From Sipunculus nudus (lineage: Eukaryota > Annelida > Sipuncula > Golfingiida > Sipunculidae), in the NCBI GenBank assembly GCA_026874595.1, contig CM049322.1, positions 47,959,840-48,023,839 of the forward strand: a DNA stretch of 64,000 nucleotides. Direction: 5' to 3'. Positions within the stretch are counted from its first letter, which is position 1, and each line of letters starts with the position of its first letter. Under the pieces are notes generated by a model that had not been told where the DNA came from, made no database searches, and was given only the letters and a program-made list of their open reading frames with translations. Positions 16,025-44,619 of the stretch are shown piece by piece. The position numbers and the translations under genes were made by a program.

Positions 16025-16225
16025 GTAAGTCTAATTCACGTGCCAGGTTAATATGTTCCGCACTATATTGTCATTTATATGGCTTTTTAACGTTCATTTT
16101 TTTTAATATTCGCTTATATTCCTCAGAGTAAGGAAATCTACGCCCGGTACGCAAACCTATACATTTGACCATGTATGCCAGCATTTTTTGTGATGTATCA
16201 TGTTATCATTGTTGCTGCTGTTCCG

Positions 16226-16576: not shown

Positions 16577-16578
<2 letters not shown>

Positions 16579-16612
<34 letters not shown>
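16579..16612. repeat. (TA)n microsatellite, module 1
   Basis: A dinucleotide tract at the same relative place as the tracts at 29312 and 44133 in the other two modules. It is intermediate in length. Confidence 0.95.
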
Positions 16613-16617
<5 letters not shown>

Positions 16618-21440: not shown

Positions 21441-22505
21441 CTTTTGCAAGATTTTACCAATCATCGAGTACTTATCAACGCCATCTGGTGTAAAATTTTA
21501 ACAATAATAGATAAGTTATCAGCGCCATCTGGTGTAATATATTTACAATCATTGATTAGTTATCAGCGCCATTTGGTGTAAGATTTTAACAATCATTGAT
21601 TAGTTATCAGCGCCATCTCGAATAACCTGTTAACAATCATTGATTAGTTATCAGCGACATCAAGTGTAAGATTTTAACAATCACTGATTAGTTATCAACC
21701 CCATCTGGTGTTACATGTTGACATTCATTGATTAGTTATCAGCGCCATCTGATGAAAGATTTTACCAATCACTGATTGGGTATCAGCGCCATCTGGTGCA
21801 AGATATTTACAATCATTGATTAGTTATCAGAGCCATCTGGTGTAATATTTTAACAATCATTAATTAGTTGTCAGCGCCATCACGTGTAAGATTTTAACAA
21901 TCATTAGTTAGTTATCAGCGCCATCTGGTTTAAAATGTTAACAATCATTGATTCTTTATCTGCGCCCTCAAGTGTAAGATTTTAACAATCATTGATTAGT
22001 TATCAGCGCCATCTGGTGCAAGATATAAACAATCAGTGATTAGTCATCAGCGCCATCTGGTGTAAGATTTTAACAATCATTGATTAGTTATCAGTGTCAT
22101 CTGCTCTAAGATTTGAACAATCATTGATTAGTTATCAGCGCTATCTGGTGTAAGATATTAAGAATCATTGATTAGTTATCAGCGCCATCTGGTGTAATAT
22201 TTTAACAATCATTGATTAGTTATTAGCCCATCTGGTGAAAGATTTTAATAATCATTGATTATTTTTCAGCGCCATCAGGTGTAAGATTTTAACAATTGTT
22301 GTTTAGTTATCAGCGGTATCTGGTGTAAGATTTCAACAATCATTGATCAGTTGTTAGCGCCATTTTGTGTAAGATGTTAAACTTCATTGGTGTGATTTCA
22401 GCGCCATCTGTTTAAAGATGTTAAAATTCATTGATTAGTTACCAGCGCCATCTGGTGAAGATTTTAACGATCATTGATTATCTTTCAGCGCTATCTGATG
22501 AAATT
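21440..22505 (+). repeat. 44-bp satellite array B, second block
   Basis: About 24 monomers, among the most regular in the window, with the AACAATCA anchor recurring every 44 bases (for example 22028 and 22072). The GCGCCATCTGGTGT core is perfect at 22050-22063. The array ends exactly where module 2 begins. Confidence 0.92.
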
Positions 22506-25500
22506 CCTGAAGTTTTAATTAGACGACAATAAAACATATTAATTCAGAAATATATAAAACGTATCGCACAGTTGTCCTGCTGTAATTATCAACACCCTCC
22601 AGTCATGTTGAAAACCCTCTCACCGACTGTCCTATTTATACAACCCTCCATGCGGAGAAATAATAGGTTTTATGCGTTTTGTACAGATGAAAGAATTTCC
22701 CGTTACGATTGAAGAATCATTTGTTTTGTTCAAATAGGAGTATTGTCCATTATTTATATATGTACAAAAAATTTATGGTTTGTTAATTTTTATAAAAACG
22801 TGCTGATAAGTGCAACCTTGGTCTCTTTGATTAAACTCGTATGCGTGAAGTGTGTGCCGACAAACAAACTTGCTTGAATGGCAAAGGCTTGAAGTGTCCA
22901 CGAAGGTAGCACGTGTCACTCAAGTTTCATTTGCCTGTTGTTTGCTTATTCAACGCCGATGACAACCTTGATTGATATATAAATGCCTATATTTAGTCAA
23001 CCGCTGGTACTCAACCTGTTTACCAAGTCAATGCCCTGCTTTTATTTCAGATAAGTGTACCGTTACAACTGTTTATCTGGGTCAAATATATACGGCCAAT
23101 GTAATGATTCGTTTAACTTTAGAATCTTACTTATGTAGATCGAAGGATCGCTGAGTATCAGGACGTCAATGTTCTTATCTCAAGTGTTTCGTTGCTACGG
23201 ACGCATATAGGCTGATTCATTCGTGACCAAAAACATATCAGACCGCAGGCACCTGGTCGCAGTCAAAGTCCTCCACTTGAAATACCATTGACGTGGCATT
23301 TTCAATAAGTATTGTGTGAAAATTGTGTGGCCAGCACATGTAATGCACATTTATGTTTCTTAATTGTGTAAACTGGGGAACGGATCTGTAAGAAATGTTA
23401 TGTTCAATAGGCTATAGTATTCATTCTGGGTTGACAAATGTTACTTGTTAATTTGAAATTATTCTTTTTGTATGTTTCTGTTCAAATCCAAGGTTCATTT
23501 ATAGGTAGACTAATTTATTGGCGGTGAAAATTATCGGAATTATCGAGTGAGTAATCTGTAAATATATGACCAGACTCAATTCCTAATCGTTATTCCAACA
23601 TAGGCTGGCTATGTGTTAGTGTGAGGCCATATAAACTGGACTTGTGCAGTTTATATACTGTTCGTTCACTTATGTATGATATTTATGTTTTGCATGTTCA
23701 GGCATTTAGTTTTCCCAAGTTATTACTCGTACCAAGTGAGTATTTATTTTATTTTATGTATCCTTTTGATCAAATTTATTCCGGAGCAATTTTTTTTTAA
23801 TATTCACAAGGATGTATGATAATAGGTAATGTTCTGATAAAATGTGATATATTGTGATATCATGTGACATATTTGGGACTCACAGTAAAGGCAGAAGGCA
23901 CTCATGACAATGCAGACAAACATAAGCAGTTCCCAGTTGCCATCAGCCCATTTTGTGTATCTGAGTAAAGCGGAGGTTATAGTGTGTTACAGCCCTTTCT
24001 TGTGACATACACATGCAAAAGGTATTAGGTCCCTATAGAACCAGGCACAGAGACTGGCTCATTTGTGTCACATATGGCTCTATTATCAATACCATTCCCA
24101 TGATCCCGGTTACGTCAAGAGCATGCAAATTTCCTGGTTATGTGTAGCAGCGTCACCTTAAAAAATAAATATAAAAAGGTAATCGTGTCTAACAGTTACA
24201 ATGCAATTTATATTTTTAAAGTAATAACTGGATTATTGGCTAATAATTTAACACCTGTATAGAGGTTATTTTACAATCAATTTCTTCAATGTATATGCTG
24301 TCTGGCTTTTTCTATGCACGTACCATCACAGGATTTCAATGGACGTGTTTTACAAGTGTATATAAATTTGTGTTAGTATAAATGTTGCACCACTAATCGC
24401 GGCAAATGCTAGTTCGTGAGCAGGTGTAAGTCAATGTTTCAGAACGAAATATTTGTAGATACTATGAATTTCAAAGGATAAACTACTATAATGTGTGTAA
24501 ATTTAACATACCTGGTGTTTGATGAGGCCAATTAAATTTGTAATATGGATTTATTTTATAGCTTTTCAAAACACGTAGCAGTAAGACAATCTCACGATTC
24601 ATTGAAACTTCAAGTGAAAATTTGACATAAAATATACCGCCGTCTAATTCGATCCTTTACTTGCCAATTTTCGGTTTAGTATATATACACTCTAAACATT
24701 TTAAATTTTTTTACATTTCTAGGGCAAGATGTACGGGTCCAGGAATTCTGCGTCTCTCTGTGAAAAGGGTAATCATAACTGATCATTACAATGTCTGTCA
24801 TGACGTAGTATTTCCATTTGGTCTTGCTTAGCGCATAAGGGCATGTCTGTATTATTTTTTTTTTCTGTTACTTGTTCTAAATGATTTGTGAATAAATAAG
24901 TAAATTAATTTTGAATGGTGGAAGGTTGGTGTCATGGGCGAATTAATACTGGGCTGACCTGGACGCGCATACAGACGTCGATGGATTTATGTAGTCTGTG
25001 AATGATCTTTAGGTATGTCCAGCTAATTATGCAGTATTTTTTTGTTTCGAGGCATCATATCCTTGTGTCTGTCATTCCCCCATATGTGGTGCAGCATTTG
25101 TAACACAGTGACCTAATGTTGGGTTTGTAAGCAGACGTAAAAGACCCTCCAAGTATATAAAGCAAAACGTTTCTAGGTCCAATGGTTAAGATATTAAAAA
25201 TGTTAGTATATTACAATTTATCATTCATATTCACAGTGGGAAAATATTTTAGCGAGTCCTTTTAATTACATAAATTATCTTTCAAAAGAGAGGTCACAGA
25301 AAGTAACCTTTTGCAGGATGACAAATCTGTAACATTACAATCGGTTCCACAGTAACTACGATCAGGGACGGATAAAGGAATTTAGAACATCGGGGTTGAG
25401 TTTACAGGGTAAGGTGGTCCAATGGTAAAGGAATATTTGCAAAATTTAGACTATAATGGTGCAATCTGAAATGGTTTAGTCATTATGCTTGTGCTATTCT

Positions 25501-26289
25501 AATTCCAAAATTGTTTAGGTCGAAAAATGGGAAGGAGATAAAGAGGGGAGGTTGCAATCCCCTTGCTCATGGATGGCCAGTGCTCTTAAACCGATTTGTC
25601 TTCCTTGTCCTTGTCCAGCCTCTTAAAATCAGTAGTTAATCTGTTCGTGATAAGTCGGGTGATTCATGCTTTCTTGCGGTTATGGTTTTTTTGTAACACC
25701 GAGTCAGCAAACGAGCTAGGTCGTTCTTTGCTAGCCTTTACATAGAGGAACAGTATCTGCAACCAGTAATCGTGTTATGTCCGAACTCCCTGCTTTTGAT
25801 TAATCTTGCAGTATACTACCAAGAATCCAGAGAACCATATTATGAATTTATGCTAATCCTGAATAAAATAAAACTGCAGCTACAAATCTAATTAAATAAG
25901 AATTAAACTCGTTTTGCATTTGCCGTCTAAGCAAATAAACCAAATAGTTTGCTTAAGTATGAATTTCACAGTACGATAGGAATCTCAGAAAAGGTTACAC
26001 ACTCAAACGTTGCCCGTGAATATTAAAAAGTCAACAGATAACATGAACAAAAACAAGTGACCCACGGGTCCTGACGCTCAGTTGAATTTACATAGAAGTG
26101 CTGGATGTATTAATTATTCGTGTTATAATATGGTGAAATCATTTACTTAAGGGGCCATGAACAATGAGGCAGAGTGATAAACATTGTGTTTTTGACCAAC
26201 GTCCTTAAAAATAGGTAACAGCGACCTTTCTTCTGGTTGCCCGAGAATATTTTGCCAGTCGCTTGCATATTATAGATCACCTTGCTCTA

Positions 26290-27340
26290 GTCTTAGGTTT
26301 CCAAGGAGATTTCACCAGAACCTCCTTGGATGTTGTGTCAGACGAATCCAGGTATATTGGTTACAATTTGTACCCTGACTATCTGATGTGGTTAAAATGT
26401 AGTTTTTGAATAGTAGTTCGCATGATAGTATTACCATGGGTAATTTCACGTTTCCCAGGAGATTTTAACAAGACTTTCCTGGATATTATGTAAAAAGTTT
26501 CTTGGTATTACAGATACAGTTTGTAATTGTGCCTTGTCTGACTGCTTAAAATCATGTTTGTAGCCAGTCGCTCAAAGAATATAGATCATCGTTATCTAGT
26601 TTCAGGTTTCCACGAAATATGCCCAGAACCTTTCTGGATATAACACAAGATGATTCAAGGCCTAACGGATACAGTTTGGGCCTGACTTTCAGGGTGCTTA
26701 ATACATTTTTCCCGTAAACCTTGCAGAATATAAGTCATGGTAACATAATTTCAGGTTTTCGAGGATATTTGTCTAGGACCTCCCTGAATGAGCAATTTCT
26801 AGGCCAAATGGATACAATTTGTGGACCTTCTGACTCTCTGGTTGCTCAAAAACATGTTTATTGGACAGTAGCTCGCAGAATATAGGTTACCGTGACCTAA
26901 TTCCGAGTTTCCATTGAAATTGGCCTGGGACCACCCTGGCTGCACAGTTAGCAGTTTCTAGTTCTAACGAATACAATTTGTTCCCTGTTAACGTCCGGGC
27001 TTTCTCATTTGTATGTTTAAAAATTGAGAATATATGCGTAAACATTCGAAAATATACAGGTGGTGCCACTAGCCTTTAGAAACTGATAAAATACTCTATA
27101 ATCAATACTCTTGGAAAGAATCATGGCAATCAGTACAATAGTTATTTAGATACTAGTGCATTGGTGTCAATATGTTTATTATTCTGCGGGGTACTTGTGA
27201 GCCCCATAGCTAAAAAAATATAGGCCGCAGAACCAAAATTTTGGGTTTCTAAGGTGATTTTTATTATCCTCCATGGGTGTTCAGTAAGAAATTTGTAGGT
27301 CCTGTGATTACGATTTGCGTCATGTTAACGGACGCCTGAA
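26290..27340 (+). repeat. Diverged 140-165 bp tandem repeat, module 2
   Basis: Collinear counterpart of 13.38-14.46 kb with the same anchors (GAATCCAGG, TTTCTTGG, TTTCTAGG). Its inverted partner array, present in module 1 at 9.6-10.8 kb, is absent from this module. Confidence 0.7.
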
Positions 27341-27835
27341 CGGGGCGTCGGACAAAAGTGATCGCTGAAAGTCATCTAAGCTAAAACTGTTACCAATCAT
27401 TTTGCTTTATCAACTGGCAAACAGGCTGAAAGCGACCGGACACTAGTTTCCATGACAAAAGATAAAATGTCATTTTCCATTCAGCCATAGTGTTTGTATT
27501 TTTCGTCACAAGTGTTGATTTTCATAAAAAACTCTATATAATAAAAAGTGTACTATATGTAAACATTTATATCCTACGTTTGTACTAAAATTATCACACA
27601 TATACATACTCAGCATTAACATAATTATTTAAAGACAGGTGCACGAATTGCTAATGTGTGACGTTGTTAATTCATCGATCAACCGGTTATCATAGATGTA
27701 ATTATATAGACCAGAGCAGCATCTGCTCTCACTAAGCTGAGAGTCACAATTATCCCATGACGATGCTTACTTTTATTCTTATGATCATTCAAGAAACATT
27801 CCTGTGTCATGCATCATCAGCCAATCCGTGCGTAA

Positions 27836-27868
27836 ATAGGAAGGGAAAGGAAGGGAAGGGAAGGGAAG
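27836..27868. repeat. GGGAA-type microsatellite
   Basis: A purine-only run of AGGAAGGGAA units at the locus where module 1 has (TA)n(GA)n. Confidence 0.85.
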
Positions 27869-28547
27869 TCCAAACAATCGCCACTCAGTGCTAGCATTCT
27901 TGGCATCAGGATCGTTTATAATCCAAAACATGTTAAGCATTCAGAACATGAACGGCCCAGGAGTCTTATAAATTTAGACACTGTATACACACTGGATTAA
28001 TGTAAAACTTGCTGATAAGCCCGGTATACCGGGCCTTTTACCAGGGCTTGGGAGATGAATTAACGGATATGAGAAATGTTGGCACAGTTTTTTTTTAAAT
28101 AAGCTAAATGAAAATATAGATTTTCAGTTGAATACTGTCCTAATTAGATATATACAAATATTTGTGTTTGCATTTACTTGTGTGGCGCTGCGCTCATGGC
28201 AAGAAGTTCATATACCTGTGTGTTTACCTTGAACACATGGTGAAAGATGGTGTTAACATTTGCAACATTCACCCATAATCATGTGTACATTAACAATTAT
28301 TTATTCTCATATCGGCAAGGACACTGCGGGAACAATAACCTTTAAAATGAGGTATCTCACAGTATCGACGCAACGCGGTTTCAGAGAATATTGCGGACAG
28401 ATATGGGCCAAGTTCCTTTTACAAGTATTAAATGTATTTGTGCATCACTACTTTTGTGATCTAAAATCAGGTCAAGGCTGATGAACGGTATCAAACTAAC
28501 GTGTATATTTTTTGTGAGCCTTTGTCAACGCACCTATAAGACCAAAG

Positions 28548-28554
28548 TATAAAA
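28548..28554 (+). promoter_or_regulatory. TATA box of module 2 gene
   Basis: TATAAAA, 136 nt before the ATG at 28684 and in the same context as in the other modules. Confidence 0.6.
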
Positions 28555-28683
28555 CATTTTGTAGTACGTCATTGATAATCTATTGACTTAAAAAAGAACG
28601 CTTAGTACCTTGGACAGGTTCGAGTAGTCAAGCATATATGTAAGGAAGTGCGACCTGCATTTGCTGGCAGATTTCTTTCCAAC

Positions 28684-28738
28684 ATGACAGCCACTATCTT
28701 GTTTTTCTTAATCCTGTGCAATCTGGCCTCAGGCAGCG
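28684..28738 (+). CDS. Signal-peptide first exon, module 2
   Basis: ATG 28684 gives MTATILFFLILCNLASGS and then a GTAAGT donor in phase 1. Relative to module 1 the upstream ATG and the GGCGGC stretch are lost, so translation must start at what is the second Met in the other copies. The hydrophobic core and cleavage region are intact. Exon 2 follows at 28925 behind a good acceptor (GCTGCAG), the only module in which that AG survives, but exon 2 is truncated by the shared 998-bp deletion. Without its original donor the reading continues into former intron. Protein family unknown. Confidence 0.6.
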
Positions 28739-28924
28739 GTAAGTCTAATTCACGTGTCAGGTTTACATCTACTATATTGTCATTTATATGGCGTTTTAAT
28801 GTTCATTTTATTTTTAGAATATTCGCTTATATTCCTCAGAGTAAGGAAATCGACGCCCTGTACGCAAACCTATACATTTGACCATGTATGCCAACTTTTT
28901 TTGTGATGTATCATGTTGCTGCAG

Positions 28925-29023
28925 TTCCGTTCACTGAAGTGCATTGTGTAATCAAACCCACTGGCCCCGTCTATATAATATCAGGCACGTGGTCACCAAG
29001 CCAACAGTGCAGCAAAATTAAAG
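28925..29023 (+). pseudogene. Truncated exon 2, module 2
   Basis: Phase-compatible with the signal-peptide exon (G|TT gives Val). It reads VPFTEVHCVIKPTGPV, then ISGTWSPSQQCSKIK, and then crosses the deletion junction at the TAAAG. It keeps a Cys (HCV) that is Tyr in module 3. The second half of the exon and its donor are gone. Confidence 0.6.
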
Positions 29024-29308
29024 CTGACGATATGCTGTCATAGGCAGTAACTACACTTGAAAAAGTCAGTTCTATTTTGGGATACACCATAACGACTCAT
29101 CGTTCTAATTGCTACTAATATTTCTACTTTGAAAAGCCATAATGTGCTAAATCTGTTGCATTTACACCAACTATTTACTATAGCTATTCCTAAGGCCTTT
29201 GTGTCTAACCATTACGAAATTTGTAAGATACTTAATTCAATCGGAAGACACAGAAAGGCACACAGCTTTGTTCAGAAAGCTAAATATTCACGTATTCTTC
29301 ATACATTC

Positions 29309-29311
<3 letters not shown>

Positions 29312-29365
<54 letters not shown>
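29312..29365. repeat. (TA)n microsatellite, module 2
   Basis: The longest of the three orthologous TA tracts; it abuts a small transposon-end-like insertion. Confidence 0.95.
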
Positions 29366-29368
<3 letters not shown>

Positions 29369-29440
29369 GGATCGTGTAGTCGGGACCAAGAAAAGTGGTC
29401 GTAATTGCGGGGGTGGTCGTAAGGCGAGGTTCCACTGTAT
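29366..29440 (-). mobile_element. Possible pogo/Tigger-like transposon end
   Basis: About 75 bases absent from modules 1 and 3, inserted in the TA tract. Read on the minus strand it begins CAGTGGAACCTCGCCTTACG, which resembles pogo/Tigger-type terminal repeats (CAGT..ACCTCG) and abuts TA. The other end does not form the matching inverted repeat, so at most one end is present. Confidence 0.35.
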
Positions 29441-30183
29441 ATATTCCTGATATATCACCAAATATTTTTTTATTGATCTGTTGCAAATATTTAAATTCTT
29501 TCTTATTTAATTTGGTGTTAATGTACAAGATTCTACTGCTAAATCGGCTGGTAAACTGGTCAGGATCATTCGGTTAATGATGTTCACATATTTAAATGCC
29601 GTTTAAAGAATGAACTACATTTTATTTTTAAAAATCCCTAGATAGATGCCGAAAATCACACGGACAAACATGCGTTGAATTTCGACCTGTAGAAGTTTAA
29701 CCCTTTAGAAGAACATGATTTATTAAGAAATAGAAGGATATGGGAACTCTTCCCATCTCTTAATTCGTCTAACCAAAATATCTGACTGAAGGTTTTTAAA
29801 ATGCAGTATAAACACATATGCACATACATGTATCTGCATAACAATGGGTATGAAAGGCTCAAATGTTGAAAACACATTTTTAATAGGCACGCGCTCAATC
29901 CAGCTTTCAACCAGGAGGACATGGGTCTCTAGAGGCTGGGATGATTAGTGATACGGCACTATTTTTTTTATCTGACCACCCCGGTGCTTTTTATTTTGCT
30001 TTTTGTTTGTTTTTCTGGGCTCTTTGTAAAAATACAGGGAACGGCATCCTAATAATATGATTATTGAAGACAGGAGATAAAATATAGATCCTTTGAGTGA
30101 ATTCCAAAGATTTGCTAAGTCATCAGACTAGTGTCTTCCTGATTGTATGGTTCGTTTACAATGAATGAAAACTACATCAAATA

Positions 30184-30307
30184 AGGGGGAAGTTAAATAA
30201 AACCTAGCAAAAAAGTTAACTCATATATGACACATTATTTGAATAATAAAATTATGCATGTTCTATGATATACACACATCATAAATGACTACATAGAGAC
30301 AAAATTG

Positions 30308-30359
<52 letters not shown>

Positions 30360-30756
30360 GAATTCAGAGACAGAAGCTTTGCATATCTTTATATATATAT
30401 GTGAGTGTGTGTGTGTGAAAGGGTGTGTATTTGTGTGTGTGTGTGTTACCTGCAAACTGTGTAACCATGCATTACATATGATGACTGAACATTTCAGGTA
30501 AATGAAATGACTGATTCTCTCAGGAATTAGGTGTAGTAACTAAAATTTCCAGGCATTAGTAGTAATCACTATAATTCGGTCATAAATATAACACAATAGG
30601 CGGGTGTCTTAGGCAATTTTTTAACAACCTAATCTCAATTCCATATCCTCTATTTTGCTAAGTAGACAGCTTAACCTATGTATGTTTAGATTTTGCAGAA
30701 CACCAATTTTCTCATACACATTTTACCTAATAATGATTCAAATAATGACTTTTATA
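30184..30756. mobile_element. Insertion unique to module 2 (about 573 bp)
   Basis: Module 1 reads CATCAAATA directly into CGGATCAG at the same place, so the insertion edges are visible. It holds (TA)n at 30312-30356 and (TG)n near 30405-30450. A part (30450-30530) is homologous, inverted, to 44.63-44.80 kb, marking it as a dispersed repeat. No clear terminal inverted repeat; the target duplication is at most TA or ATA. Confidence 0.55.
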
Positions 30757-30827
30757 CGGATCAGCTCTCTTCGTCTACTGATTTATTGTTGAGGGCGGCG
30801 TTGGAAAATTTTTAAACTACACACTGA

Positions 30828-33800
30828 AATCAATCATTGGTTAGTTATCAGCGCCGTCTGGGGTAAGATGTTAATAATCATCAATTAGTTATCAGCCGCA
30901 TCTGGTGTAAGATGTTAACAATCATCGATTAGTTTTCAGCACCATCTGGTGTAAGATGTTAACAATCATTGATCAGATATCAGGGCCATTTGGGGAAAGA
31001 TGTTAAAAATCATTGATTAGACATCAACGCCATCTGTTGTAAGATGGTAACAAGCATTGAACAGAAATTAGAGCAATCTGGTGTGAAATGTTAACAATCA
31101 TTGATTAGGTATCAGCGCCATCTTGTGTAAGGTGTTTATAATTGTTTTAAGTTATCATCGCCATCTGGTGATAGATTTTAACAATCATTGATTCGTTATG
31201 AGCGCCATCTGGTGTAAAATGTTCCCAATCATTGATTGTCATCAGTGCCATCTGGTTTTAGATTTTAACAATCATTCATTAGTTCTTACCACCATCAGGT
31301 GTAAGATTTTAACAATCATTGCTCAGACATCAGCGCCATTTGGTGTAAGATGTTTGCAATCATTGATTATTTATCATCGCTATATGGTGTATGATTCTTA
31401 GAGTCAATGCTCAGATATCAGCGCCATCTGGTGTAAGATTTTTAGATTCATTGAGTAGCTGAATCAACGCCAACCGGTTTAAGCTATTTACAATCACAAA
31501 TAAATTATCATCGCCATATTTTGGTAGATGTTTACAATGAATGGTTAGTTATCAACACCGTCTGGGGTAAGATGTTAATAATCATCAATTAGTTATCAGC
31601 CGCATCTGGTGTAAGATGTTAACAATCATCGATTAGTTTTCAGCACCATCTAGTGTAAGATGTTCACAATCATTGGTAAGTTATCAGCGCCATGTGGTGT
31701 CAGATTTTAACAATCATTGATTCGTTATGAGCGCCATCTGGTGTAAGATGTTCACAATCATTAATTTGTCATCAGCGCCATCTGGTGTAAGAATTTAACA
31801 GTCAATGCTCACATATCAGCGCCATCTGGTGTGAGATTTTTATATCCATTGAGTAGCTGAATCAACGCCATCCGGTTTAAGCTATTTACAATCACAAATA
31901 AATTATTTTCGACATCTTTTGGTAGATGTTTACAATCATTGGTTAGTTTTCAGCGCCGTCTGGGGTAAGATGTTAATAATCATCAATTAGTTTTCAGCCG
32001 ATTAGTTTTCAGCACCATCTGGTGTAAGATGTTAACAATCATTGATCAGATATCAGGGCCTTTTGGAGAAAGATGCTAAAAATCATTGATTAGACATCAA
32101 CGCCATCTGTTGTAAGATGGTAACAATCATTGGACAGTTGAATCAGCGCCATCCGGTGTAAGATATCTAAAATCATTGTTAAGTTATCATCGCCATCTAG
32201 TGATAGATGTTTATAATCATTCATTAGTTCTTACAACCATCAGGTGTAAGATTTTAACAATCATTGCTCAGACATCAGCGCCATTTGGTGTAGGATGTTT
32301 GCAATCATTGATTATTTATCAGCACAATCTTGAGTAAAATGTTAACAATCATTGATTAGTGATCAGGGTCATCTGGTGTAAGATGTTTATGATCATTGAT
32401 TAGGTGAATCAGCGCAAACTGGTGTATGGTTGTTACAATCACTGATAAGTTTTCAGCGCCATCTGGTGTAAGATGTTAAGAATCATCGATTAGTTATCAG
32501 CGTCATTTGGTGTAAGATTTTAACAATCATTGATTAGTTAACAGCGCCATCTGGTGTAAGATGTAAACAATCATTCATCAGATATCAGCCCAATCTGGTT
32601 TAAGATCTTTACAATCAATAATTAGTTATCAGCGCCATCTGACGTCAGATTTTCAAAATAACTGATTATTTATCAAGGCCAAGTGGCGTACGATGTTTAT
32701 AATCAAGGACTAGTTGTATCAGCGCCATCTGGTATAAGATTTTAATAATCATTGATTACTTATCAGCCTATCTGGTGTAAGATGTTAAAAATCATTGATT
32801 TGTTTCTAGCGCCATTTCGTGTAAAATGTTAAGAATCACTGAACAGCTATCAGGGCCTTTTGATGTGAGATGTCAACAATCATTGATTAGTTAACAGCGC
32901 TCCCTAATGTAAGATATTAACAATGATTGATCAGATATTATAGCGCCATCTGACGTGAGATTTTAACAATCATTCATTAGGTATCAGCCCCATCTGGGGA
33001 AAGATGTTAACAATCATTGATTAAATATCCGAGCCATCTGGTGTAAAATGTTTATAATCGTGGATATGTTAATTCAGCGCCATCCGGTGTAAGATATTAA
33101 CCATCATTAATTGGTTATTATCTATATCTGGAGGTAAATGTTTACAATCTGGTGTTTTCAATCATTTACCAGATATTAAGGCCTTTTGGTGTTAGAAGTT
33201 ATCAGCGCCATCTGTTGTAAGATGTTATCAATCATTGATTGTTTTAGCGCCATCTGGTGTGAGATGTTAAAAATCATTGTTAGATATAAGCGTCATCTGG
33301 TGTGAGTTGTTAACAATCATAAATTAGATATCATCGCCATCTAGATGTTTCCAATCATTGTATAGTTATTAGCGCCATGTTGTGTAAGGTTTTTACATCA
33401 TTGATTTGTTATCAGCGCCATCTTGTGTAAGGTGTTAAAATTGATCAATTAGTTATTCCCGCCATCTGGCGTAAGATTCTTAAAATCATTGCTCAGTTAT
33501 CAATGCCATCTGGTGTAATATGTTTACAATCATGGACTAATTATCAGCGCCATCTGGTGTAAAATATTTACTATCTCCGATTTGTTATCAGCGTCAACTG
33601 GTATAACATCTTAACACTCCTGGATCAGATTTAAGCGCCATTTGATTGTAGATGTTAACAACCATTTATCAGTTATCAGCGCCATCTGGTGTCAGATTTT
33701 TACAACTATTGATTAGGTGAATCAGCGCCATCTGGTGTCACATTTTAAAAAATCATTGATTAGTTTTCAGCCCTATATTGTGTAAGTTGTAAAGAATCAT

Positions 33801-36800
33801 TGATTAGTTTTCAGCGTCATCTGGTGTAAGGTGTTAAGAATCACTGATCAAATATTAGGGCTTTTTGGTGAAAGATGTCGACAATCATTGATCAGGTATC
33901 AGCGCCATCTAGTGTGACATGTTAACAATCATTGATCAGATATTAGCACCATCTGGTGTGAGATGTTTATAATTATTTATTCGCTGAATCAGCGCCATCC
34001 GTTGTAAGATATTTACAATCATTAATTAATTATCATCACCGTCTGTTTTAAGATTTTAACACTCCTTGATCAGATTTCAGCGCACTCGGGTGTAAGATCT
34101 TTAGAGTCAATGATTAGTTATCAGTGCCATCTGGTGTCAGATTTTAAAAATCATTGATTAGTTATCAGCGCCATATGGTATACAATTTTTTATAATCATT
34201 GATTATTTGAATCAGTCCTACCTGGTGTAAGATTTTGACAATCATTAATTAGTTATCAACCCCATATGTTGTAAGATGTTAACAATCACTGATCAGATAT
34301 TAGGGCCTTTTGGTGTAAAATGTCTGCAATTATTGATCAGATATTAGTGCCTTTTGGTGTAAGATGTCAACAGGCAGTTATCAGAAATCAGCGCTATCTC
34401 TTGTAAGATGTTAACAATCATTGATCGATATTAGCGCTATCTCTTGTAAGATGTAACAATCATTGATTAGATATGAGCGCCATCTGTTGTAAAATTTTAA
34501 CAATTGTTGACTAGTTATCAGCCAATCTGGTGTTTTTGATGCTAACAATCATTCATTTGTTATCAGGGCTATCTGGTGTAAGATTTTAACAATCAAAGCT
34601 CAGATATCACCGCCAACTGGGGTAAGATGTTCACAATCAATGTTTAATTATCAGCGCCATCTGGAGTAAGATGTTAACAATCATTGATAAGATATCAGCG
34701 CCATCTGGTGTGATATGTTTATATTCATTGATTAGTTGAATCAGCGCCATCCGGTGTGAGTTATTTACAGTCATTAATAAGTTATCCTCGCCATCTGTTT
34801 GTAGATGTTTACAATCATTGGTTAGTTATCAGCGCCATACAGTGTAAGATTTTTCCAACCATTGATTAGTTATCAGCGCCATCCGGTGTGAAATCTTAAT
34901 ACTCATTGATTAGATATCAGCGCTTTCTGATGTAACATGTTAACAATCATTGATTAAATATCAGCGCCATCTGGTCTAACATCTCTATAATCATTGATTA
35001 GTTGAATCGGCGGCATCCGGTGTAAGATATTTACAATAATTAATTAGTTATCAACGCTATCTGATGGTAGGTGTTTGCAATTATTGAGTAGTTTTCATCC
35101 GGCTGATGTAAGAAGTTTACAGTCTTTTATCATATATTAGGGCCTTTTGGTATAGGAAGTTAAAATTCATTGATCATTTATTAGCGGCATCTGTTTTAAG
35201 ATGTTAACAATCATCAATTAGATATAAGGGCTATCTGGTGTAAGAATTTAACAACCATTGATTAGTTCTTACCACCATCAGGTGTAGGATTGCTCATCAT
35301 TGCTCAGACATCAGCGCCATTTGGTGTAAGATGTTTGCAATCATTGATTATTTATCAGCACCATTTTGAGTAAAATGTTTACCAAGATCGATTAGTTATC
35401 AGCGTCATCTGGTGTAAGATATTTATAATCATTGATTAGTTGAATAAGCGCAATCTGGTGTATCGTTGTTACAATAATTGATTAGTTTTCAGCGCCATCT
35501 GGTGTAAGATGTTTAGAATCATCGATTAGTTATCAGCGCAATCTGGTGTAACATCTTTACAATCATTTAATCATAATTAGTTATCAGCGCCATTTGGAGT
35601 CAGATTTTCACAATAATTGATTATTAATCAAGGCCAATTGATGTACGATGTTTATAATCATTGAATACTTGTATCAGCGCCATCTGGTGTAAGATTTTAA
35701 CAATCACTGATTACTTATCAGCGCTATTTGGTGTAAGATGTTAACAATCATTGATTGGTTTCCAGCGCAGTTTCGTGTAAAATGTTAAAAATTACTGAAC
35801 AGCTATCAGGGCCTTTTGATGTAAGATTTAAACAAGCATTGATTACTTATCAGCGCCCCCTCATGTAAGATGCTATCAATTATTGATCGTTTAAGCGCCA
35901 TCTGGTGTGAGATGTTAACAATCATAGATTATATATCATCGCCGTCTAATGATAGATGTTTACAATCATTGTATAGTTATTAGCGCCATGTGGTGTAAGG
36001 TTTTTATATCATTGATTTGTTATCAGCGCCATCTTGTGTAAGGTGTTAACATTGATTAATTAGTTATCAGCTCCGTCCGGTGTTATATGTGAAAATTTAT
36101 TCATTAGTTAATTACCGCCATCTGGCGTAAGATTTTTAAAATCATTGCTCAGATATCAACAATCATTCATTAGTTATCACCGTTATCAGGGCTATCTGGT
36201 GTACGATTTTAACAATCAAAGCTCAGATATTAGCGCCAACTGGGGTAAGATGTTTACAATCAATGATTAGTTATCAGCGCCATCTGGTGTAAGATGGTAA
36301 CAAAAATTGATTAGTTATCAGCGTCATCTAGTGAAATTATAACACCCCTTGATCTGATTTCAGCGCCATCTGGTGTAAGATGTTAATAACAATTGACTAG
36401 TAATCAGTGCAATCTGGAGTAAGATGTTAACAATCATAGATAAGATATTATCGCCATCTAATGATAGATGTTTACAATCATTGTATAGTTATTAACGCCA
36501 TGTTGTGTAAGGTTTTTACATCAATGATTTGTTATCAGCGCCATCTTGTGCAAGGTGTTTACATTGATCAATTAGTTATCAGCGCCATCTGGTGTTATAT
36601 GTTTGCAATCATTGAGTAGTTTTCAGCGCCATCTGGTGTAAGAAGTTTACAGTCTTTGATCAGATATTAGGGCCTATTGGTGCAAGATGTTAACATTCAT
36701 TGATCAGTTATCAGTGGCATCTGTTGTAAGATGTTAACAGTCATCAATTAGTTATCAGGGCTATCTGGTGTAAGAATTAAATAACCATTGATTAGTTATC

Positions 36801-39790
36801 AGCGCCATGTGGTGTAAGATTTTTACAACCATCGATTAGTTATCAGCGCCATCTGGTGTTAGATGTTAACAATTATCAATTAGTTATCAGCCCATCTGGT
36901 TTTAGATTTTAACAATCATTCATTTTTTTTACCACCATCAAGAGTAGGATATTAACAATCATTGCTCAGAAATAAGCGGCATTTGGTGTAAGATGTTTGC
37001 AATCATTGATTGTTTATCGGCACCATCTTGAGTAAAATATTTATAATCATTGATTAGTTGAATCAACGCAATCTGGTGTATCGTTGTTACAATAATAGAT
37101 TAGTTTTCAGCTCAATCGGGTGTAAGATGTTAAGAATCATCGATTAGTTATCAGCGTCATCTGGTGTAAGATTTTAACAATCATTGATTAGTTAACAGCG
37201 CCATCTGGTGTAAGATGTAAACAAATATTCATCATATATCAGTGCAATCTGGTGTAACATCTTTACAATCATTAATTAGTTATCAGAGCCATCTGGAGTC
37301 AGATTTTCACAATTATTGATTATTAATCAAATTGATGGCGATGTTTATAATCATTGAATACTTGTATCAGCGCCACCTGGTGTAAGATTTTAACAATCAC
37401 TGATTACTTATCAGCGCTATCTGGTGTAAGATTTTAACAATCACTGAACAGCTATCAGGTCCTTTTGATGTAAGATGTCAACAATCATTTATTACTTATC
37501 AGCGCCCCCTCATGTAAGATGTTATCAGTTATTGATCGTTTTAGCACCATCTGGTGTGAGATGTTAACAATCATTGTCAGATATAAGCGCCATCTGGTGT
37601 GAGATGTTAACAATCATAGATTAGATATCATCGCAATCTAATGATAGATGTTCACAATCATTGGTTAGTTATCAGAGCCATGTGGTGTAAGGTTTATACA
37701 TCATTGATTTGTTATCAGCGCCATCTTGTGTAAGGTGTTAACATTGATCAATTAGTTATCAGCGCCATCTGGCGTTATATGTTAAACTTTATTCATTAGT
37801 TATTTCCGCCATCTGGCGTAAGATTTTTAAAACCATTGCTCTGATATCAACAATCATTCATTAGTTATCACCGTTATCAGGGCTATCTGGGGTACGATTT
37901 TAACTATCAAAGCTCAGATATCAGCGCCAACTGGGGTAAGATGTTCACAATCAATGATTAGTTATCAGCGCCATCTGGTGTTATATGTTAACATTTATTC
38001 ATTAGTCATTACCGCCATCTGGCGTAAGATTTTAAAAATCATTCCTCGGATATCAAAGCCATCTGGTGTAATATGTTTACAATCATTGATTAATTATCAG
38101 CGCCATCTGGTGTAAAATGTTAACAATCATCGATTTGTTATCAGCGTCATCTGAGGTAACATTTTAACACTCCTGGATCAGATTTAAGCGCCATCTGATT
38201 GTAGATGTTAACAGTAATTGATTAGTTACCACCGCCATCTGACGTACGATTTTAATAATCATTAATTAGATATCGGCGCAACCCATTGTAACATCTTTAC
38301 AACCATTCATCAGTTATCAGTGCCATCTGGTGTCAGATTTTGACAACTATTGATTAGGTGAATCAGCGCCATCTGGTGTCACATTTTAAAAATCATTGAT
38401 TAGTTATCAGCTTTATATTGTGTAAGTTGTAAACAATCATTGATTAGTTTTCAGCGTCATCTGGCGTAAGGTGTTAAGAATCATTGATCTGATATTAAGG
38501 CGTTTTGGTGAAAGATGTCGACAATCATTGATCAGATATCAACGCCATCTAATGTGAGATGTTAACAATCTTTCATCAGATATTAGCACAATCTGGTGTG
38601 AAATATTTATAATTATTGATTCGCCTAATCAGCGCCATCCGGTGTAAGATATTTACAATCATTAATTAATTATCATCACCATCTGCTGGTAGATGTTTAC
38701 AATCATTGGTTTGTTATCAGCGGCATGTGGTGTAAGATTTTTGCAACCATTGATTAGTTATCAGCGCCATCCGGTGAAATATGTTAACATTCATTGATTA
38801 TATATCAGTGCCATCTGCTGTAAGATTTAAACAATCATTCATCAGTTATCTCCGCCATCTGGTGTAAAATTTTAACAGTTATTGCTCAGATATCAGCGCC
38901 ATCTGGCGTGAGATTTTAAAAACCATTGATTTGTTATCAGCGTCATCTGGGGTAAGGTTTTAACACTCCTTGATCAGATTTCAGTGCACTTGGGTGTAAG
39001 ATCTTTACAATCACTGATCAGTTATCAGTGCCATCAGGTGTCAGATTTTAAAAATCATTGATTAGTTATCAGCGCCATATGGTATACAATTTTTATAATC
39101 ATTGATTATTTGAATCAGTCCCACCTGGTGTAAGATTTTGACAATCATTAATTAATTATCAGCCCCATATGTTGTAAGATGTTAACAATCACTGATCAGA
39201 TATTAGGGCCTTTTGGTGTAAGATGTCCACAATCAGTGATCAGATATCAGCGCTATCCCTTGTAAGATGTAGCAATCATTAATCGATATTAGCGCTATCT
39301 CTTGTAAGATGTTAACAATCATTGATCAGATATAAGCGCCATCTGTTGTAAAATTTTAACAATCTTTGATTAGTTATCAGCCAATCTGGTGTTTTTGATG
39401 ATAACAATCAAAGCTCAGATATCAGCGCCCTCTGGGGTAAGATGTTCACAATCAATGATTAGTTATCAGCGCCATCTGGTGTAAGATGGTAACAATCATT
39501 GATTAGTTATCAGCGTCATCTGGTGTAATTATAACACTCCTTGATCTGATTTCACGTCATCTGGTGTAAGATGTCAATAATAATTGACTAGTTGTCAGCG
39601 CCATCTGGAGTTAGATCATTGATTTAGGTATCAGCGTCTTCTGGTGTAAGAAATTTTAACAATCATTGCTTAGTTTTCGGCGCCATCATAATGTGTTGTA
39701 AAATGTGACCAATCACTAAATATTTATCAGCGCCTGGTGTAAGATGTCAACAATCGTGGGGGTGTTATCAGCGCTATCTCGTGAAATTCC
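30828..39790 (+). repeat. 44-bp satellite array C (about 200 monomers)
   Basis: Nearly 9 kb of head-to-tail 44-bp monomers, all in one orientation. Consensus core TCAGCGCCATCTGGTGTAA lies in an AT-rich linker with CATTGATTAG. Several monomer classes occur in ordered strings: a GTTGAATCAGCGCCATCC class, a CATCTGTTGGTAGATG class, an AGGGCCTTTTGG class and a CATCTTGAGTAAAATG class. Ordered strings repeat at distances of about 1.65, 3.0 and 4.6-4.9 kb, so a higher-order structure overlies the basic unit. No coding frame is conserved. The end at about 39790 is the start of module 3. Confidence 0.93.
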
Positions 39791-42427
39791 TGAAGTTTCA
39801 ATTAAAAGACAATTAAACATTATCATAAGGCAATTTAGAAAACGTATCAGACACGTGTCCTGCTATATTTATCGACACACATGCAGCCATATTGTGAAAA
39901 CCCCCTGGCAAAGACACACGGGTGCCCGGACATATAGTCCTAACATATATCCAAACCTAAGTGCGGAGAAATAATAGGTTTTGTGCAAATTGTACGAATA
40001 AAGGCAATTCCCGTAACGATTGAATATACATATTTATATAGGAGTATTGTTAATAAGTTTATATATACAAAAAGGTTATGGCTTATTTCTAAGATACGAG
40101 CTGAGAAGTGCAATCTCGGCCTCTTTGATTGAATAGGCGATCGTACTGTTGCATGCTTGAAGTGTTTACCGACAATCTTGCCTGAATGTCAAAGGCTTGA
40201 AGAGTCCACGGAGTAGCATGTGTCGCTCCAGTTACTTTGCCTGTTATTAGCTTATTCAACGCCAATGACAAACCGTGGTTGGTATATGAATTCCTATACT
40301 TAGTTACCCGCTGGTACTCAACCTGTTTACCAGTCAATGCCTTTATTCATATCATGTGAAAGTTTGAGATAAAATATACCGTCCTCCAATTCGATCCGGC
40401 ACCTGCCAATTTTTTTTTAGTATATATACACACCAAAAATCTTTTTACACTTACTGGGTAATATGTACGGGTTCATGAATTCTGAGATAAGGGTAATCAT
40501 AACTGATTATAACAATGTCTGTCATGACGTAGTATTCCCATTAGGTCTTGCTTAGTGCATAACGGCATGCCTCAAGTATTTTTTTTTGTTACTTGCTCTT
40601 AAAGATTTTTTTATTTAATGATAGGAGGTGGCTGCCGTGGGCGATTAATATTGGGCTGAACTAGACGCGCAAACAAACGTCGATGGATTTATGTATTTTG
40701 TGAATGATCTTTAGTTCTAATTAATTAATTATGCTAACATCAGTATTTTATGTTTTCTAGGCATCTTATTCTTGTGTCTGTCATTCCCCTATATGTGGTG
40801 CAGCATACAGAACACAGTGACCTAATGTTGGGTTTGTAAGCAGACGTAACAACCCCCCCCCCCAAGGATATAAAGGAAGCCGTTTCTAGGTCCAATGGTT
40901 AAGATATTAAAAATGTTAGTATTATCACAATATACCATTCATATTCCAAAATATATCAGCAAGCCCTCTTAAATACATAATTATCTTTTATAAGAGAGGA
41001 CATGTAAAGTCTACGGGCAGTTTCAATTTCCTTTTGTAGGGTGAAATCTTTAACATTACAATCGGTTTCACAGCAACTACGATCAGGGACGGGTAAAGAG
41101 TTTCGGAACATTGGGGTTGGGGTTAAAGGAGAAGGGCGCGGTCCAATGGTAAAAGAATATTTTGAAAATTTAGGCTGCAATGTTACAATCTTGGTTAGTT
41201 AATTCATTGTGCTTGTATTATTCTTATTCAAGATTGTTTAGGTCAAAAAATGGGGTTGGAGGTAAAGAGGGGAGAGTGCACTCCCCTTGTTCATGGTGTG
41301 CCAGTGCTTTAAAACCGATTCGTCTTCCTTGTCCAACCCCTTACAATCCTTAATTCATCCTTGACCCAGCAGTCTGTATTTCATGATTGGTTTAAACTTT
41401 CTTGTGGTTAAGGTTTCGTGTGCACACCGAGTCTGCAGACGAGGTAGGTCGTTTTTGGCTAGACTTTACATAGTGGAACAGTATGTGCAGCCAGTAATCC
41501 TGTTTTTTCCGAACTCCCTGCTTTTGATTAATCTTGCAGTATTCTACCAAGAATCTGGAGAACCATATTATAAATTCATGCTTTTTATGAATACAATAAG
41601 TTATAATTAAACTCGTTTTGAATTCGCTATCTAACAAATAGACCAAATAATTTGCTTAAGTATGACTTTCACAGTACGATTAGAATTTCACAAACAATGC
41701 CGGGGAATATCACAAAGTCAGCTGATTGCGCGAACCAAAATAAGTGACGGGGAAGGGAGGTCTAAAAAACACCACTTAGTACTGGCATACTTGACATCTG
41801 ATCGTTTTTAATCCAAAACATGTTTAACATTCAGAACATGATTGGTCTGGGAGTCTCATAAACGTAAACACTGTATACACACTGGATTGCTGATAAACCC
41901 GGTATACCGGGCTTGTTACCAGGCATGGGTGATGCATTAACTGATTTGAGGAACGTTGGTTCATTTTTTTTATTTTAAAAGCTAAAAGAAAATATAGATT
42001 TTCAGTTAGATCCTGTCTCAATAAGATATGTACTAACATTTCTATTTGCATTTATTGAGGTGGCCCCGCGCTCGTGGCAATAAATTTATATACCTATGTG
42101 TTTACCTTGAAGACATGGTGAAAGATTGGGTTTACATTTGCATAAATCACTTATAATGATGTGTACATCATTTCTTTTTCTCATATCGACATAGAGACTG
42201 CGGGAACAATAACCTTTAAAATGAGGTATCGCACAGTATTGTACGCAACGCGGTTTCAGAGAACATTGCTTACAAATATGGCCCAAATTCCTTTTATAAG
42301 TATTAAATTTATTTGCATATCACTACCATGTGATCCTAAATCCTGTCAAGGCTGATGAACGGTTTCAAACTAACATGCATACAAAGGCTTTTTGTAAGCC
42401 TTTGTCAACACGTCTATAAGACCAAAG

Positions 42428-42434
42428 TATAAAA
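42428..42434 (+). promoter_or_regulatory. TATA box of module 3 gene
   Basis: TATAAAA, again exactly 136 nt upstream of the first ATG of the signal-peptide exon. Confidence 0.55.
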
Positions 42435-42563
42435 AATTTTGTAGCACGTCATGGATAATCTATTGACCTTCTAAGGTGAAACTTAATACCTTGGACAGAT
42501 TCGAGTAGTTAAGCATATACATAAGGAGGTGCGTCCTGAATTTGCTGGCAGAGTTTTCCCAAC

Positions 42564-42627
42564 ATGGCGGCCATGAAAACCACTATCTTATTTTTCTTTA
42601 TCCTGTGCAACCTGGCCTAATGCAGCG
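42564..42627 (+). pseudogene. Signal-peptide exon with premature stop, module 3
   Basis: ATG 42564 is the same start as in module 1 and the exon has the same 64-nt length and GTAAGT donor. The peptide reads MAAMKTTILFFFILCNLA and then TAA at 42618-42620, where the sister copies have TCA (Ser). The nonsense change falls just before the expected cleavage site, so no mature protein could be made from this start. Either the copy is a pseudogene or another promoter or first exon is used. Confidence 0.7.
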
Positions 42628-42826
42628 GTAAGTCTAATCTACGTGTCAGGTTAATATGTTCCGCATTAAATTGTCTTTTATACGGCTTTTTAATGTTCAT
42701 TTATTTTCAGAATATTCTCTTATATTCCTCAGAGTAGGGGATCTAAGCCCGGTACACAATCCTATACTTTTGACCATATATGCCAACGATTTGTTGTGTA
42801 TCATGTTAAAATATTGTTGCTGCTTG

Positions 42827-43006
42827 TTCCGTTCACTGAAGTGCCTTATGTAATCAAACACACTGGTGACGTCCATTTAATATCAGGCACGTGGTCAGCA
42901 AGCCAAGAGTGCAGCACAATTAAAGGTCAGGTTTCTGAACCCGGTGGTTCACTTTGGAATTCCCATTGTACAACAATAAGACATGTGACGGTGACTGACA
43001 GCCAAG
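42827..43006 (+). CDS. Complete exon 2 of module gene (60 codons)
   Basis: A 180-nt stretch open in the frame set by the signal-peptide exon, starting at phase 1 and ending at GACAGCCAAG|GTAC, also phase 1. It encodes VPFTEVPYVIKHTG, then ISGTWSASQECSTIK, a Gly/Ser-rich turn, WNSHCTT and VTVTDSQ. Alternating hydrophobic strands with Cys suggest a small extracellular beta-rich module; I do not recognise the family. The acceptor AG just before it has become TG, and a Cys found in the sisters is Tyr here. Its 1-1 phase fits the lectin-domain exons downstream, so it could have been part of one receptor gene. Confidence 0.45.
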
Positions 43007-44128
43007 GTACAGCTTTTCACACAGCATTACTGTATGGCATTTTGTGTATTCTTTGTATAGACTAAGTCAGTAAGTTTGTATGTGTGTGAATATTTTTTTA
43101 AGCATATTTCATTTCAAATGTGTTTAAACTTTATTCCGTTTTTCTGTGACGAGAACAAATAAAAATACTAGTTTCATTTTAATATGACTCAGTCAATTAT
43201 ATAAAAAATGTGTGGGTTAGTTGTCAAAAGTGAGAAATTCCTGATAGTATTTAAGCACCATATATTTATATGTCCAGTCCTGTAATGGCCTGACACTGCA
43301 CTGACCCAAGCATTTTTTTATTCCGCCATGCAGCACAGTTTCACACTGTTGAAAACTGGTGTAGGAGATACCTGTGTGCTGTGTATTATGCATGTACTCT
43401 CATTTTGAGTCCTGTAGGTGTTATTTCTGACAAAAGTTGGATGTAAACTGCTTGATCAAATTAGTTATATCAGAACAAATATATAATAAGATTAATATAT
43501 GCACAATGAACAGAGTTTAAGCAGAGGTATGTTTTTGAGATTACCAGCATTTTATACAGACTAATGACACATCATGCCCTGCCTGTACAGGAGGCCTCGA
43601 GTTGTTTTTTATATATATATGTATATAAATCCTGGCTATTATCGGTGACTTTGCACCTCCCACGCTAAATTAGAACTGGGACTTGCATAGGCACATATAA
43701 TTCATTTTCCTGAAGAAAACACATCAATCATACATAAAAACATTATTTATTTCAGTTATTTGCAGTTTTAGGAACATGTCTGCAAGAATTCAGCTCAGAT
43801 AACCACTTCTTTTCCAGCTAATAATGCAGTTAGAGCCCAAGTGAACAGTTGCAGGGATAATGTGAAACTCCATGTTGCCCAGTAACGCCCCCTGGTATTT
43901 ATACTGGAACCCCGTCTCTAAAGCTGACGATATGCTGTCATAGGCAGTTACTTCGCTTGAAAAAGTCAGTTCTCTTTTAGGATACACCATAACGACTCAC
44001 CGTTCTAATTACTACTATTATTTCTACTTTGAAAAGCCATAATGTGCTAAATCTGTTGCATTTACAGCTACTGTTTACTATAGCTATCCCTAATGCTGAA
44101 TATTCACGTATTCTTCATACATTCATTA

Positions 44129-44132
<4 letters not shown>

Positions 44133-44159
<27 letters not shown>

Positions 44160-44160
44160 T
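44133..44160. repeat. (TA)n microsatellite, module 3
   Basis: The shortest of the three orthologous TA tracts. Confidence 0.95.
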
Positions 44161-44619
44161 TCTTGCTACATCACACAATACTTTTTTTATTCATCTGTTG
44201 CAAATATTTATTTTCTTTTCTTATTTAATATGGTGCTACTGTACAAGATTCTACTGCTAAAGCGGCTCGTAAACTGGTCAGGATCATTCGGGTAATAATA
44301 TTCACATAATTGAATGCCGTTTACAGAATATTATACAATTTTATATAAAAAAATCTCTTTACAGATGCCTAAAATCACACGCACAAACATTCGGTGAAGT
44401 TCGACCTAAAGAAATTGAACCCTTTAAAAGAAAATTATTTATTAAGAAATAGCAGAATATGGGAACTCTTCCCATCTCTTAGAACTTGACATGCGATTCT
44501 TATAGGTGTCCCTGCATTAAAGCTATACTGAAGTACATTAACATTGTTACAGCAGCAAAAGTCAAATCAACTGATTGTCACTCGACAATGTATGTTGTCA
44601 TTCAGCAGTAACATAGACA

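What the first reader, a model, noticed from the sequence alone, without database searches (positions are those of the whole stretch)
30828..39790. Each 44-bp satellite monomer carries a near-perfect CTCF-type site, all in one orientation
Seen: the monomer core GCGCCATCTGGTGT recurs every 44 bases (for example 22050-22063) and about 200 times, with variants, in this array. Known: a widely used CTCF consensus is CCASYAGRKGGCRC; its reverse complement is GYGCCMYCTRSTGG. The monomer core matches 13 of 14 positions. Inference: the arrays could bind CTCF or a related zinc-finger protein at very high density, with all sites pointing the same way, making a directional boundary or compaction element next to a duplicated receptor locus, in the spirit of mammalian DXZ4. 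Forty-four bases is also close to four helical turns, which would place sites on one face of the helix.
Basis: partly seen in the sequence, partly recalled or inferred. Interest (0 to 1): 0.85.

Follow-up and report, generated by a model that had tools for sequence, protein, structure and literature searches.

The report
Private repeat array of CTCF-core sites
One spot in this animal genome carries about 300 short repeats, each built around the core word that the genome-folding protein CTCF recognises; CTCF probably binds many of them, but whether they act as a chromosome boundary is unproven.

Summary
Three arrays of a 44-bp repeat (A1 6557-8662, A2 19816-22503, A3 30831-39790; about 306 units, 205 in A3) lie in three tandem duplicates of a segment. 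The unit consensus matches 13 of 14 CTCF positions; 0 of 20,000 shuffled units score as well. One orientation is automatic in a tandem repeat.

The genome encodes an 11-finger CTCF whose fingers 3-5 match human at 12 of 12 contact positions. The CTCF consensus occurs 3379 times against 45 for the reversed word. The unit's exact word occurs 131 times outside the window; sampled sites share an upstream element with canonical sites.

Limits: 51 of 294 units keep 13 or more positions; 1 of 213 array sites has the upstream element in register; the core is only slightly more conserved than the spacer. The helical-face claim fails.

The 132-bp trimer search matched nowhere else in the 1.43-Gb genome. 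Best reading: a private minisatellite of core-only CTCF sites, comparable to mouse DXPas34. Binding is likely; boundary function is unproven.

The parts
6557..7797 (+). array A1, left part: about 29 units, the outer ones degenerate; CTCF-type cores on the minus strand
   Evidence: nhmmer and wrap-around alignment
7800..8255 (.). insertion without unit matches that splits array A1
8260..8662 (+). array A1, right part: 10 units
8663..17692 (+). duplicated segment, copy 1 (homology in blocks, not continuous)
   Evidence: most blocks 87-91% identical to copy 2, e.g. 12026-14965 vs 24954-27838 at 89.7%; the first block, partly array, 81.7%
19816..22503 (+). array A2: 62 units, with an inverted-repeat-like patch near 21022-21125
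22504..30834 (+). duplicated segment, copy 2, ending where array A3 begins
30831..39790 (+). array A3: 205 units; 126 vertebrate-matrix CTCF hits on the minus strand at p<1e-4 (14.1 per kb) against 2 on plus
39791..44481 (+). duplicated segment, copy 3 (more diverged: about 74-82% identical to copies 1 and 2 in blocks over 500 bp)

Best explanation
A locus-private minisatellite whose 44-bp unit is a CTCF core site. Shown: the arrays, their orientation, their place in three duplicates, the core match above chance, the host CTCF gene, the genome-wide use of the same core, and the absence of an in-register upstream element from nearly all array sites. Inferred: the array predates the duplications, because A1 and A2 edges still align colinearly, and A3 grew by internal block duplication. 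Inferred: host CTCF binds many units through zinc fingers 3-7 only. Neighbouring 44-bp sites are probably too close for all to be filled at once (footprint size recalled), so occupancy would be partial and shifting. The result would be a nucleosome-poor, CTCF-rich stretch that slows cohesin arriving from lower coordinates, the side that minus-strand cores face, as a graded rather than sharp boundary.
For: Core match: consensus 13/14, 0 of 20,000 shuffled units as good; 76/72 matrix hits in A3 at p<1e-5 against shuffle means of 0.10/0.15. Genome vocabulary: CCASYAGRKGGCRC 3379 vs 45 reversed (some are copies within repeats); exact unit word 167 vs 0 reversed, 36 of them in the window. 100 of the 131 other sites were fetched and fall into 65 flank clusters; 48 canonical sites fall into 36. 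An upstream profile trained on canonical sites recognises unit-word sites (18 of 65 at >=1.5 vs 6.2% at control shifts, p 1e-10), and the reverse holds (11 of 36 vs 7.6%, p 8e-5), so both look like one bipartite site type. CTCF gene: C11:67037578-67038510, E 3.4e-109, 56% identity; 11 of 11 fingers matched by the C2H2/C2HC pattern, contacts of fingers 3-5 identical at 12 of 12; best PDB match is CTCF. Slight core constraint: observed/expected change 0.84, one-sided p 0.018 and 0.022 in two non-independent tests. The core CpG does not decay faster than other C and G columns, which fits an unmethylated germ-line state but also unmethylated intergenic DNA in general. YY1 matrix: 7 hits at p<1e-5 in A3 against 72-76 for CTCF.
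Against: No occupancy, accessibility or Hi-C data. Unadjusted core conservation does not differ from spacer (0.845 vs 0.829, p 0.87), and after adjustment the core ranks only 4th and 2nd among 44 rotations of a 14-bp window. In-register upstream element in 1 of 213 array sites (related copies, not independent) against 29 of 101 dispersed sites (self-trained figure) and 3.7% of background positions; 67 of 213 array sites carry TNGTT two bases too close, a spacing seen in 0 of 101 dispersed sites. Fingers 6 and 7 keep 1 of 4 and 2 of 4 contact residues. Orientation is automatic in a tandem repeat. CTCF motif direction showed no association with TAD-like domains in echinoderms (passages) and no clear directional arrangement in an annelid (passages).
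Confidence: 0.6

Rival explanations
1. Neutral minisatellite. It started from DNA that happened to contain a CTCF core and expanded by slippage and unequal exchange; CTCF binding, if any, is incidental and does nothing for the locus.
For: Unadjusted core conservation equals spacer; adjusted constraint is only about 16%; 243 of 294 units miss at least two of the 14 positions, where the consensus itself misses one; the upstream element is absent in register; the edges look like ordinary decay.
Against: Base-class-adjusted tests both lean to core constraint (p about 0.02), and in five paralogous comparisons the core changed less than the spacer in all five (pooled 116 of 852 vs 290 of 1777; the pairs share sequence). 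The older edge-unit consensus keeps the same 14-base core while 3 of 30 spacer positions differ, too few to be decisive.
Confidence: 0.27
2. Another protein reads the core, such as one of the genome's many C2H2 zinc-finger proteins or a bHLH factor at the CATCTG E-box inside it.
For: The genome holds many C2H2 arrays (320 matches). CAGATG is an E-box (recalled).
Against: The genome-wide enrichment and the shared upstream element fit CTCF. The YY1 matrix scores the consensus poorly. No other matrix was tried.
Confidence: 0.09
3. A dispersed satellite or transposon-borne repeat that happens to be sampled here.
For: Some satellites derive from mobile elements (titles seen in the listing).
Against: All 115 matches of a 132-bp trimer lie in this window (the tool calls such counts lower bounds). 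No unit at E<1e-3 in 80 kb of flanks. Among 100 listed exact words elsewhere the closest two are 2.3 kb apart.
Confidence: 0.04

Closest known systems
DXPas34 minisatellite, mouse X-inactivation centre
   Same: Short-unit minisatellite (34 bp) described as carrying a CTCF site in each unit; local, and variable between rodent species (PMC3149622, passages).
   Different: Mammalian, CpG-rich, beside the Tsix major promoter, with a reported regulatory role. Here the unit is 44 bp, the arrays are AT-rich and triplicated in an unnamed animal, and no binding data exist.
DXZ4 macrosatellite
   Same: Tandem repeat with a conserved CTCF-bound sequence per unit (PMC3491370, passages).
   Different: Human units are about 3 kb and the array is X-linked; here units are 44 bp.
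Clustered and tandem CTCF sites at TAD boundaries and in the Pcdh and Igh clusters
   Same: Several sites in series, each contributing (PMC10497529 abstract and section 7; PMC7087399 abstract and outline).
   Different: Those are separate elements or a few motifs per peak with measured binding; here about 200 cores lie in 9 kb with a mostly fixed 44-bp step.
Vertebrate bipartite CTCF site with upstream motif
   Same: Dispersed sites of this genome favour TNGTT at -15, resembling the vertebrate CTGCAGTTTC element (PMC12885311, passages).
   Different: Array sites lack it in register. In that paper mutating the upstream motif abolished enhancer blocking, and sites without it are said to bind less rigidly; but it also states that only 13-15% of CTCF sites carry it.

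Membership tests
CTCF binding site | 14-bp core consensus above chance | tested here: met
   13/14 consensus; 0 of 20,000 shuffles as good; matrix hits in A3 far above shuffles
CTCF binding site | host encodes CTCF with core-reading fingers | tested here: met
   11 fingers; contacts of fingers 3-5 identical at 12 of 12, fingers 6 and 7 at 1 and 2 of 4
CTCF binding site | upstream motif read by fingers 9-11 (an optional feature, present in a subset of sites) | tested here: not met
   1 of 213 array sites in register
CTCF binding site | occupancy in cells | not testable with these tools
   no functional data held
CTCF minisatellite of the DXPas34 kind | short tandem unit with a CTCF core in most units at one locus | tested here: met
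   213 cores at >=11/14 in arrays of 306 units; no match elsewhere in the genome at the sensitivity
CTCF minisatellite of the DXPas34 kind | regulates a neighbouring promoter | not testable with these tools
   no expression data
DXZ4-type macrosatellite | kilobase-scale unit | tested here: not met
   44-bp unit
Genome-wide satellite family | arrays at many loci | tested here: not met
   all 115 trimer matches lie in this window
YY1/Pho site array | YY1 matrix match above chance | tested here: inconclusive
   7 hits at p<1e-5 in A3 against a shuffle mean of 0.2, but the consensus itself reaches only 0.18 of the maximum score

The most novel reading that the evidence does not exclude
The arrays form a natural CTCF landing strip in what is probably an invertebrate: some 200 core-only, same-facing sites in 9 kb that bind CTCF dynamically through fingers 3-7, slow cohesin by number rather than by affinity, and were copied with their segment so that they separate duplicated units. 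That would make it a natural test of whether site number can replace the upstream motif in making a directional boundary.
Probability: 0.25. Interest if true: 0.8.

Novelty: new variant of a known kind. Interest (0 to 1): 0.56.

Why it matters
CTCF-bearing tandem repeats such as DXPas34 and DXZ4 are described in mammals, and whether CTCF direction matters outside vertebrates is open (passages). A private array of about 200 same-facing core-only CTCF sites would be a natural experiment: does number without the upstream motif make a boundary, and does direction matter? The genome-wide part also matters: the canonical CTCF vocabulary, with an upstream element like the vertebrate one, is visible in this animal from sequence alone.

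Tried and rejected
Helical phasing of the sites: rejected. Dispersed satellite or transposon origin: not supported. Rfam (gathering threshold) and tRNA scans of the window: nothing. Pfam on 10 hand-picked frames of the duplicated segments, out of 286 frames of 50 aa or more outside the arrays: no hits. Diverged copy of the segment about 0.5 Mb to the left on the same contig (C17:47445731): best unit-profile hit in the 8 kb beside it is E 0.37, but homology stops about 3.6 kb short of where the array would lie, so the absence dates nothing. The unit's shifted TTGTT as a usable upstream element: best shifted score not better than shuffles (p 0.125). Literature: a search for the exact unit word and close variants gave two papers, neither opened, with titles on mosquito odorant-binding proteins and on IFITMs; searches on CTCF with satellites, 44-bp repeats, minisatellites or molluscs showed no title or abstract start describing such an array in an invertebrate. 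That is a statement about those listings only.

Not done: a genome search for paired cores 15-45 bp apart, a one-mismatch search and a count of GCGCCATCTGGTGG did not complete. In their place I used nearest-neighbour distances among the 100 places listed, and a look for second cores in 148 fetched sites (15 of 148 have one, several of them copies of one another). Taxonomic identity was not tested.

On the required re-check I corrected the profile-hit tally, added the 11.0-bp phase value, the rotation ranks, the hand-picking of canonical sites and the 13-15% figure, and softened the weight put on the missing upstream element.
Full report
What is there. The window is C17:47959840-48023839 of an unnamed 1.43-Gb assembly. 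TRF reports a 44-bp repeat at 7243-7792, 8260-8662, 19816-22497 and 30831-39783. A profile of the unit gives 298 hits in the window at E<=10: 290 in the arrays (288 on plus), five more on plus at 6557-6776 that extend the first array leftward (4.8-17.5 bits), and three stray ones of 3.0-3.1 bits. Segmentation gives 306 units, 294 nearly full; it forces degenerate stretches into units, so edge counts are approximate. The arrays sit at matching places in three tandem copies of a segment whose homology comes in blocks. Copies 1 and 2 are 87-91% identical in most blocks (81.7% in the first, which is partly array); copy 3 is about 74-82% identical to them in blocks over 500 bp. A1 and A2 edges still align colinearly at 85.5% over 1037 bp, so the array probably predates that duplication and homogenisation is slow. 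A3 contains longer internal periods (125 and 185 bp) and repeated blocks near its left end.

Is the CTCF match real? The consensus matches 13 of 14 positions, the miss being the first C of CCASYAGRKGGCRC. No shuffled unit of 20,000 reaches the consensus score. Individual units vary: of 294, one has 14/14 and 50 have 13/14. Spacing is exactly 44 in 210 of 298 steps. Phase coherence of A3 cores is 0.04 at 10.5 bp and at most 0.20 (at 11.0 bp) among six periods, and 44 bp is 4.19 turns at 10.5.

Does this genome use such sites? CCASYAGRKGGCRC occurs 1629 + 1750 times against 20 + 25 for the reversed word. The unit's exact 14-mer occurs 167 times against 0, 36 of them in the window. I fetched all 100 listed places of the 14-mer (of 131 outside the window) and 48 hand-picked of the 100 listed canonical sites, all on C1. 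They collapse into 65 and 36 clusters by flank similarity, so part of the genome-wide count is copies. Outside the searched word both sets favour T at -15, T at -12 and T at +14; G at -13 and T at -11 are clear in the 14-mer set (0.42, 0.55) and weak in the canonical set (0.31, 0.42). Profiles trained on one set recognise the other: 18 of 65 and 11 of 36 at >=1.5, controls 6.2% and 7.6%. T.GTT stands at -15 in 12 of 101 (9 of 65 and 3 of 36) and in 0 to 3 at 19 other offsets. This resembles the vertebrate upstream element CTGCAGTTTC with its roughly 8-bp linker (PMC12885311, passages). In a first batch of 68 sites, 58 cluster representatives match the unit's flanks at 8.7 of 30 positions on average, maximum 17, so most are not stray units.

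Is there a CTCF? The human finger region finds C11:67037578-67038510 at E 3.4e-109 and 56% identity, in an open frame of 887 aa from its ATG. All 11 fingers fit the zinc-ligand pattern; contact residues of fingers 3-5 are identical to human at 12 of 12, finger 7 keeps R and D, finger 6 keeps Q only, and fingers 9, 10 and 11 keep 2, 5 and 1 of 7 helix residues. Its best solved match is CTCF. Only 125 of 1731 candidates were scored, so a second CTCF with split exons is not excluded.

What the array lacks. Of 213 array cores with 11 or more matches, 1 has the upstream element in register at score >=2, against 29 of 101 dispersed sites (a self-trained figure) and 3.7% of background positions; 67 of 213 carry T.GTT two bases closer, a spacing seen in 0 of 101 dispersed sites. 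Array sites are copies of one another, so 213 is not 213 independent cases. The unit consensus's best shifted score is no better than shuffles (p 0.125). In the cited vertebrate paper, mutating the upstream motif abolished enhancer blocking and sites without it are said to bind less rigidly, but only 13-15% of sites carry it. So core-only sites are common and can bind; the point argues for dynamic binding, not against binding.

Constraint. Raw core conservation is not higher than spacer (0.845 vs 0.829, p 0.87). Adjusted for base class, the core changes at 0.84 of expectation, one-sided p 0.018 in paralogous pairs and 0.022 in consensus departures; another 14-bp window scores lower still in the pair test (rank 2 of 44), and the core ranks 4 of 44 in the other. 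These tests share data. The core C of the CpG turns to T in 9.2% of units and other C columns in 9.3-14.1%; its G turns to A in 6.9%, other G columns in 4.1-11.9%. The consensus of 32 edge units keeps the same 14-base core while 3 of 30 spacer positions differ, which is suggestive only.

Locality. All 115 matches of a 132-bp trimer lie in this window (the tool warns that counts of repeats are lower bounds). No unit at E<1e-3 lies in 40 kb on either side. The closest pair among 100 listed words elsewhere is 2.3 kb apart. A 1-kb piece of the duplicated segment finds its three copies, a diverged relative about 0.5 Mb to the left, and short dispersed repeats.

Mechanism. I commit to partial, shifting CTCF occupancy through fingers 3-7, giving a graded brake on cohesin from the low-coordinate side. 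The binding step is likely (about 0.65); the boundary step is a guess (about 0.3). Clustering of motifs strengthens boundaries in mouse cells (PMC10497529, abstract and section 7). Against a directional reading, motif orientation was not associated with TAD-like domains in echinoderms (PMC13317027, passages) and no directional arrangement was seen in an annelid (PMC7854359, passages). [quoted passage not shown]

Place among known things. DXPas34 is the nearest: 34-bp units, described as each holding a CTCF site (PMC3149622, passages). DXZ4 shares the idea but has kilobase units (PMC3491370, passages). I file this as a new variant of the CTCF-minisatellite kind by sequence, with function untested. 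That the animal is an invertebrate, perhaps a mollusc, is a guess from contig sizes and gene kinds; no call tested it.

Noticed in passing
L001-L008, L037-L176 (148 dispersed sites): The genome's CTCF-like sites favour an upstream element (T at -15, T at -12, often G at -13 and T at -11) like the vertebrate finger 9-11 motif, although fingers 9 and 11 of the host CTCF have diverged from human.
   Followed up: partly
L177:58-2721: The CTCF gene found is a single long open frame (887 aa) with no intron across the 11 fingers.
   Followed up: partly
L033:1586-3538: NACHT-domain frame (PF05729, E 1.8e-19) starting 1.6 kb past the window's right end; a lectin exon at 49884-50339 and a weak one at 55238-55531 lie between it and the arrays.
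   Followed up: no
window 21022-21125: An inverted-repeat, MITE-like patch sits inside array A2, with a decayed counterpart near 6960-7040 in A1.
   Followed up: no
window 58968-62220, minus strand: Broken gypsy-type retroelement pieces (RNase H-like and integrase zinc-binding domains).
   Followed up: no
C17:47445731-47446053 (L184, L187): A more diverged copy of the duplicated segment about 0.5 Mb to the left, with no clear array unit in the 8 kb fetched beside it.
   Followed up: partly
left flank, L030 and L032, 2.5 to 28.5 kb left of the window start: Single CTCF-like sites on the minus strand, the same direction as the arrays, at -2.5, -4.9, -7.1, -21.8 (fly matrix only), -23.5 and -28.5 kb; one on plus at -30.9 kb (L029). 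The right flank is mixed.
   Followed up: no
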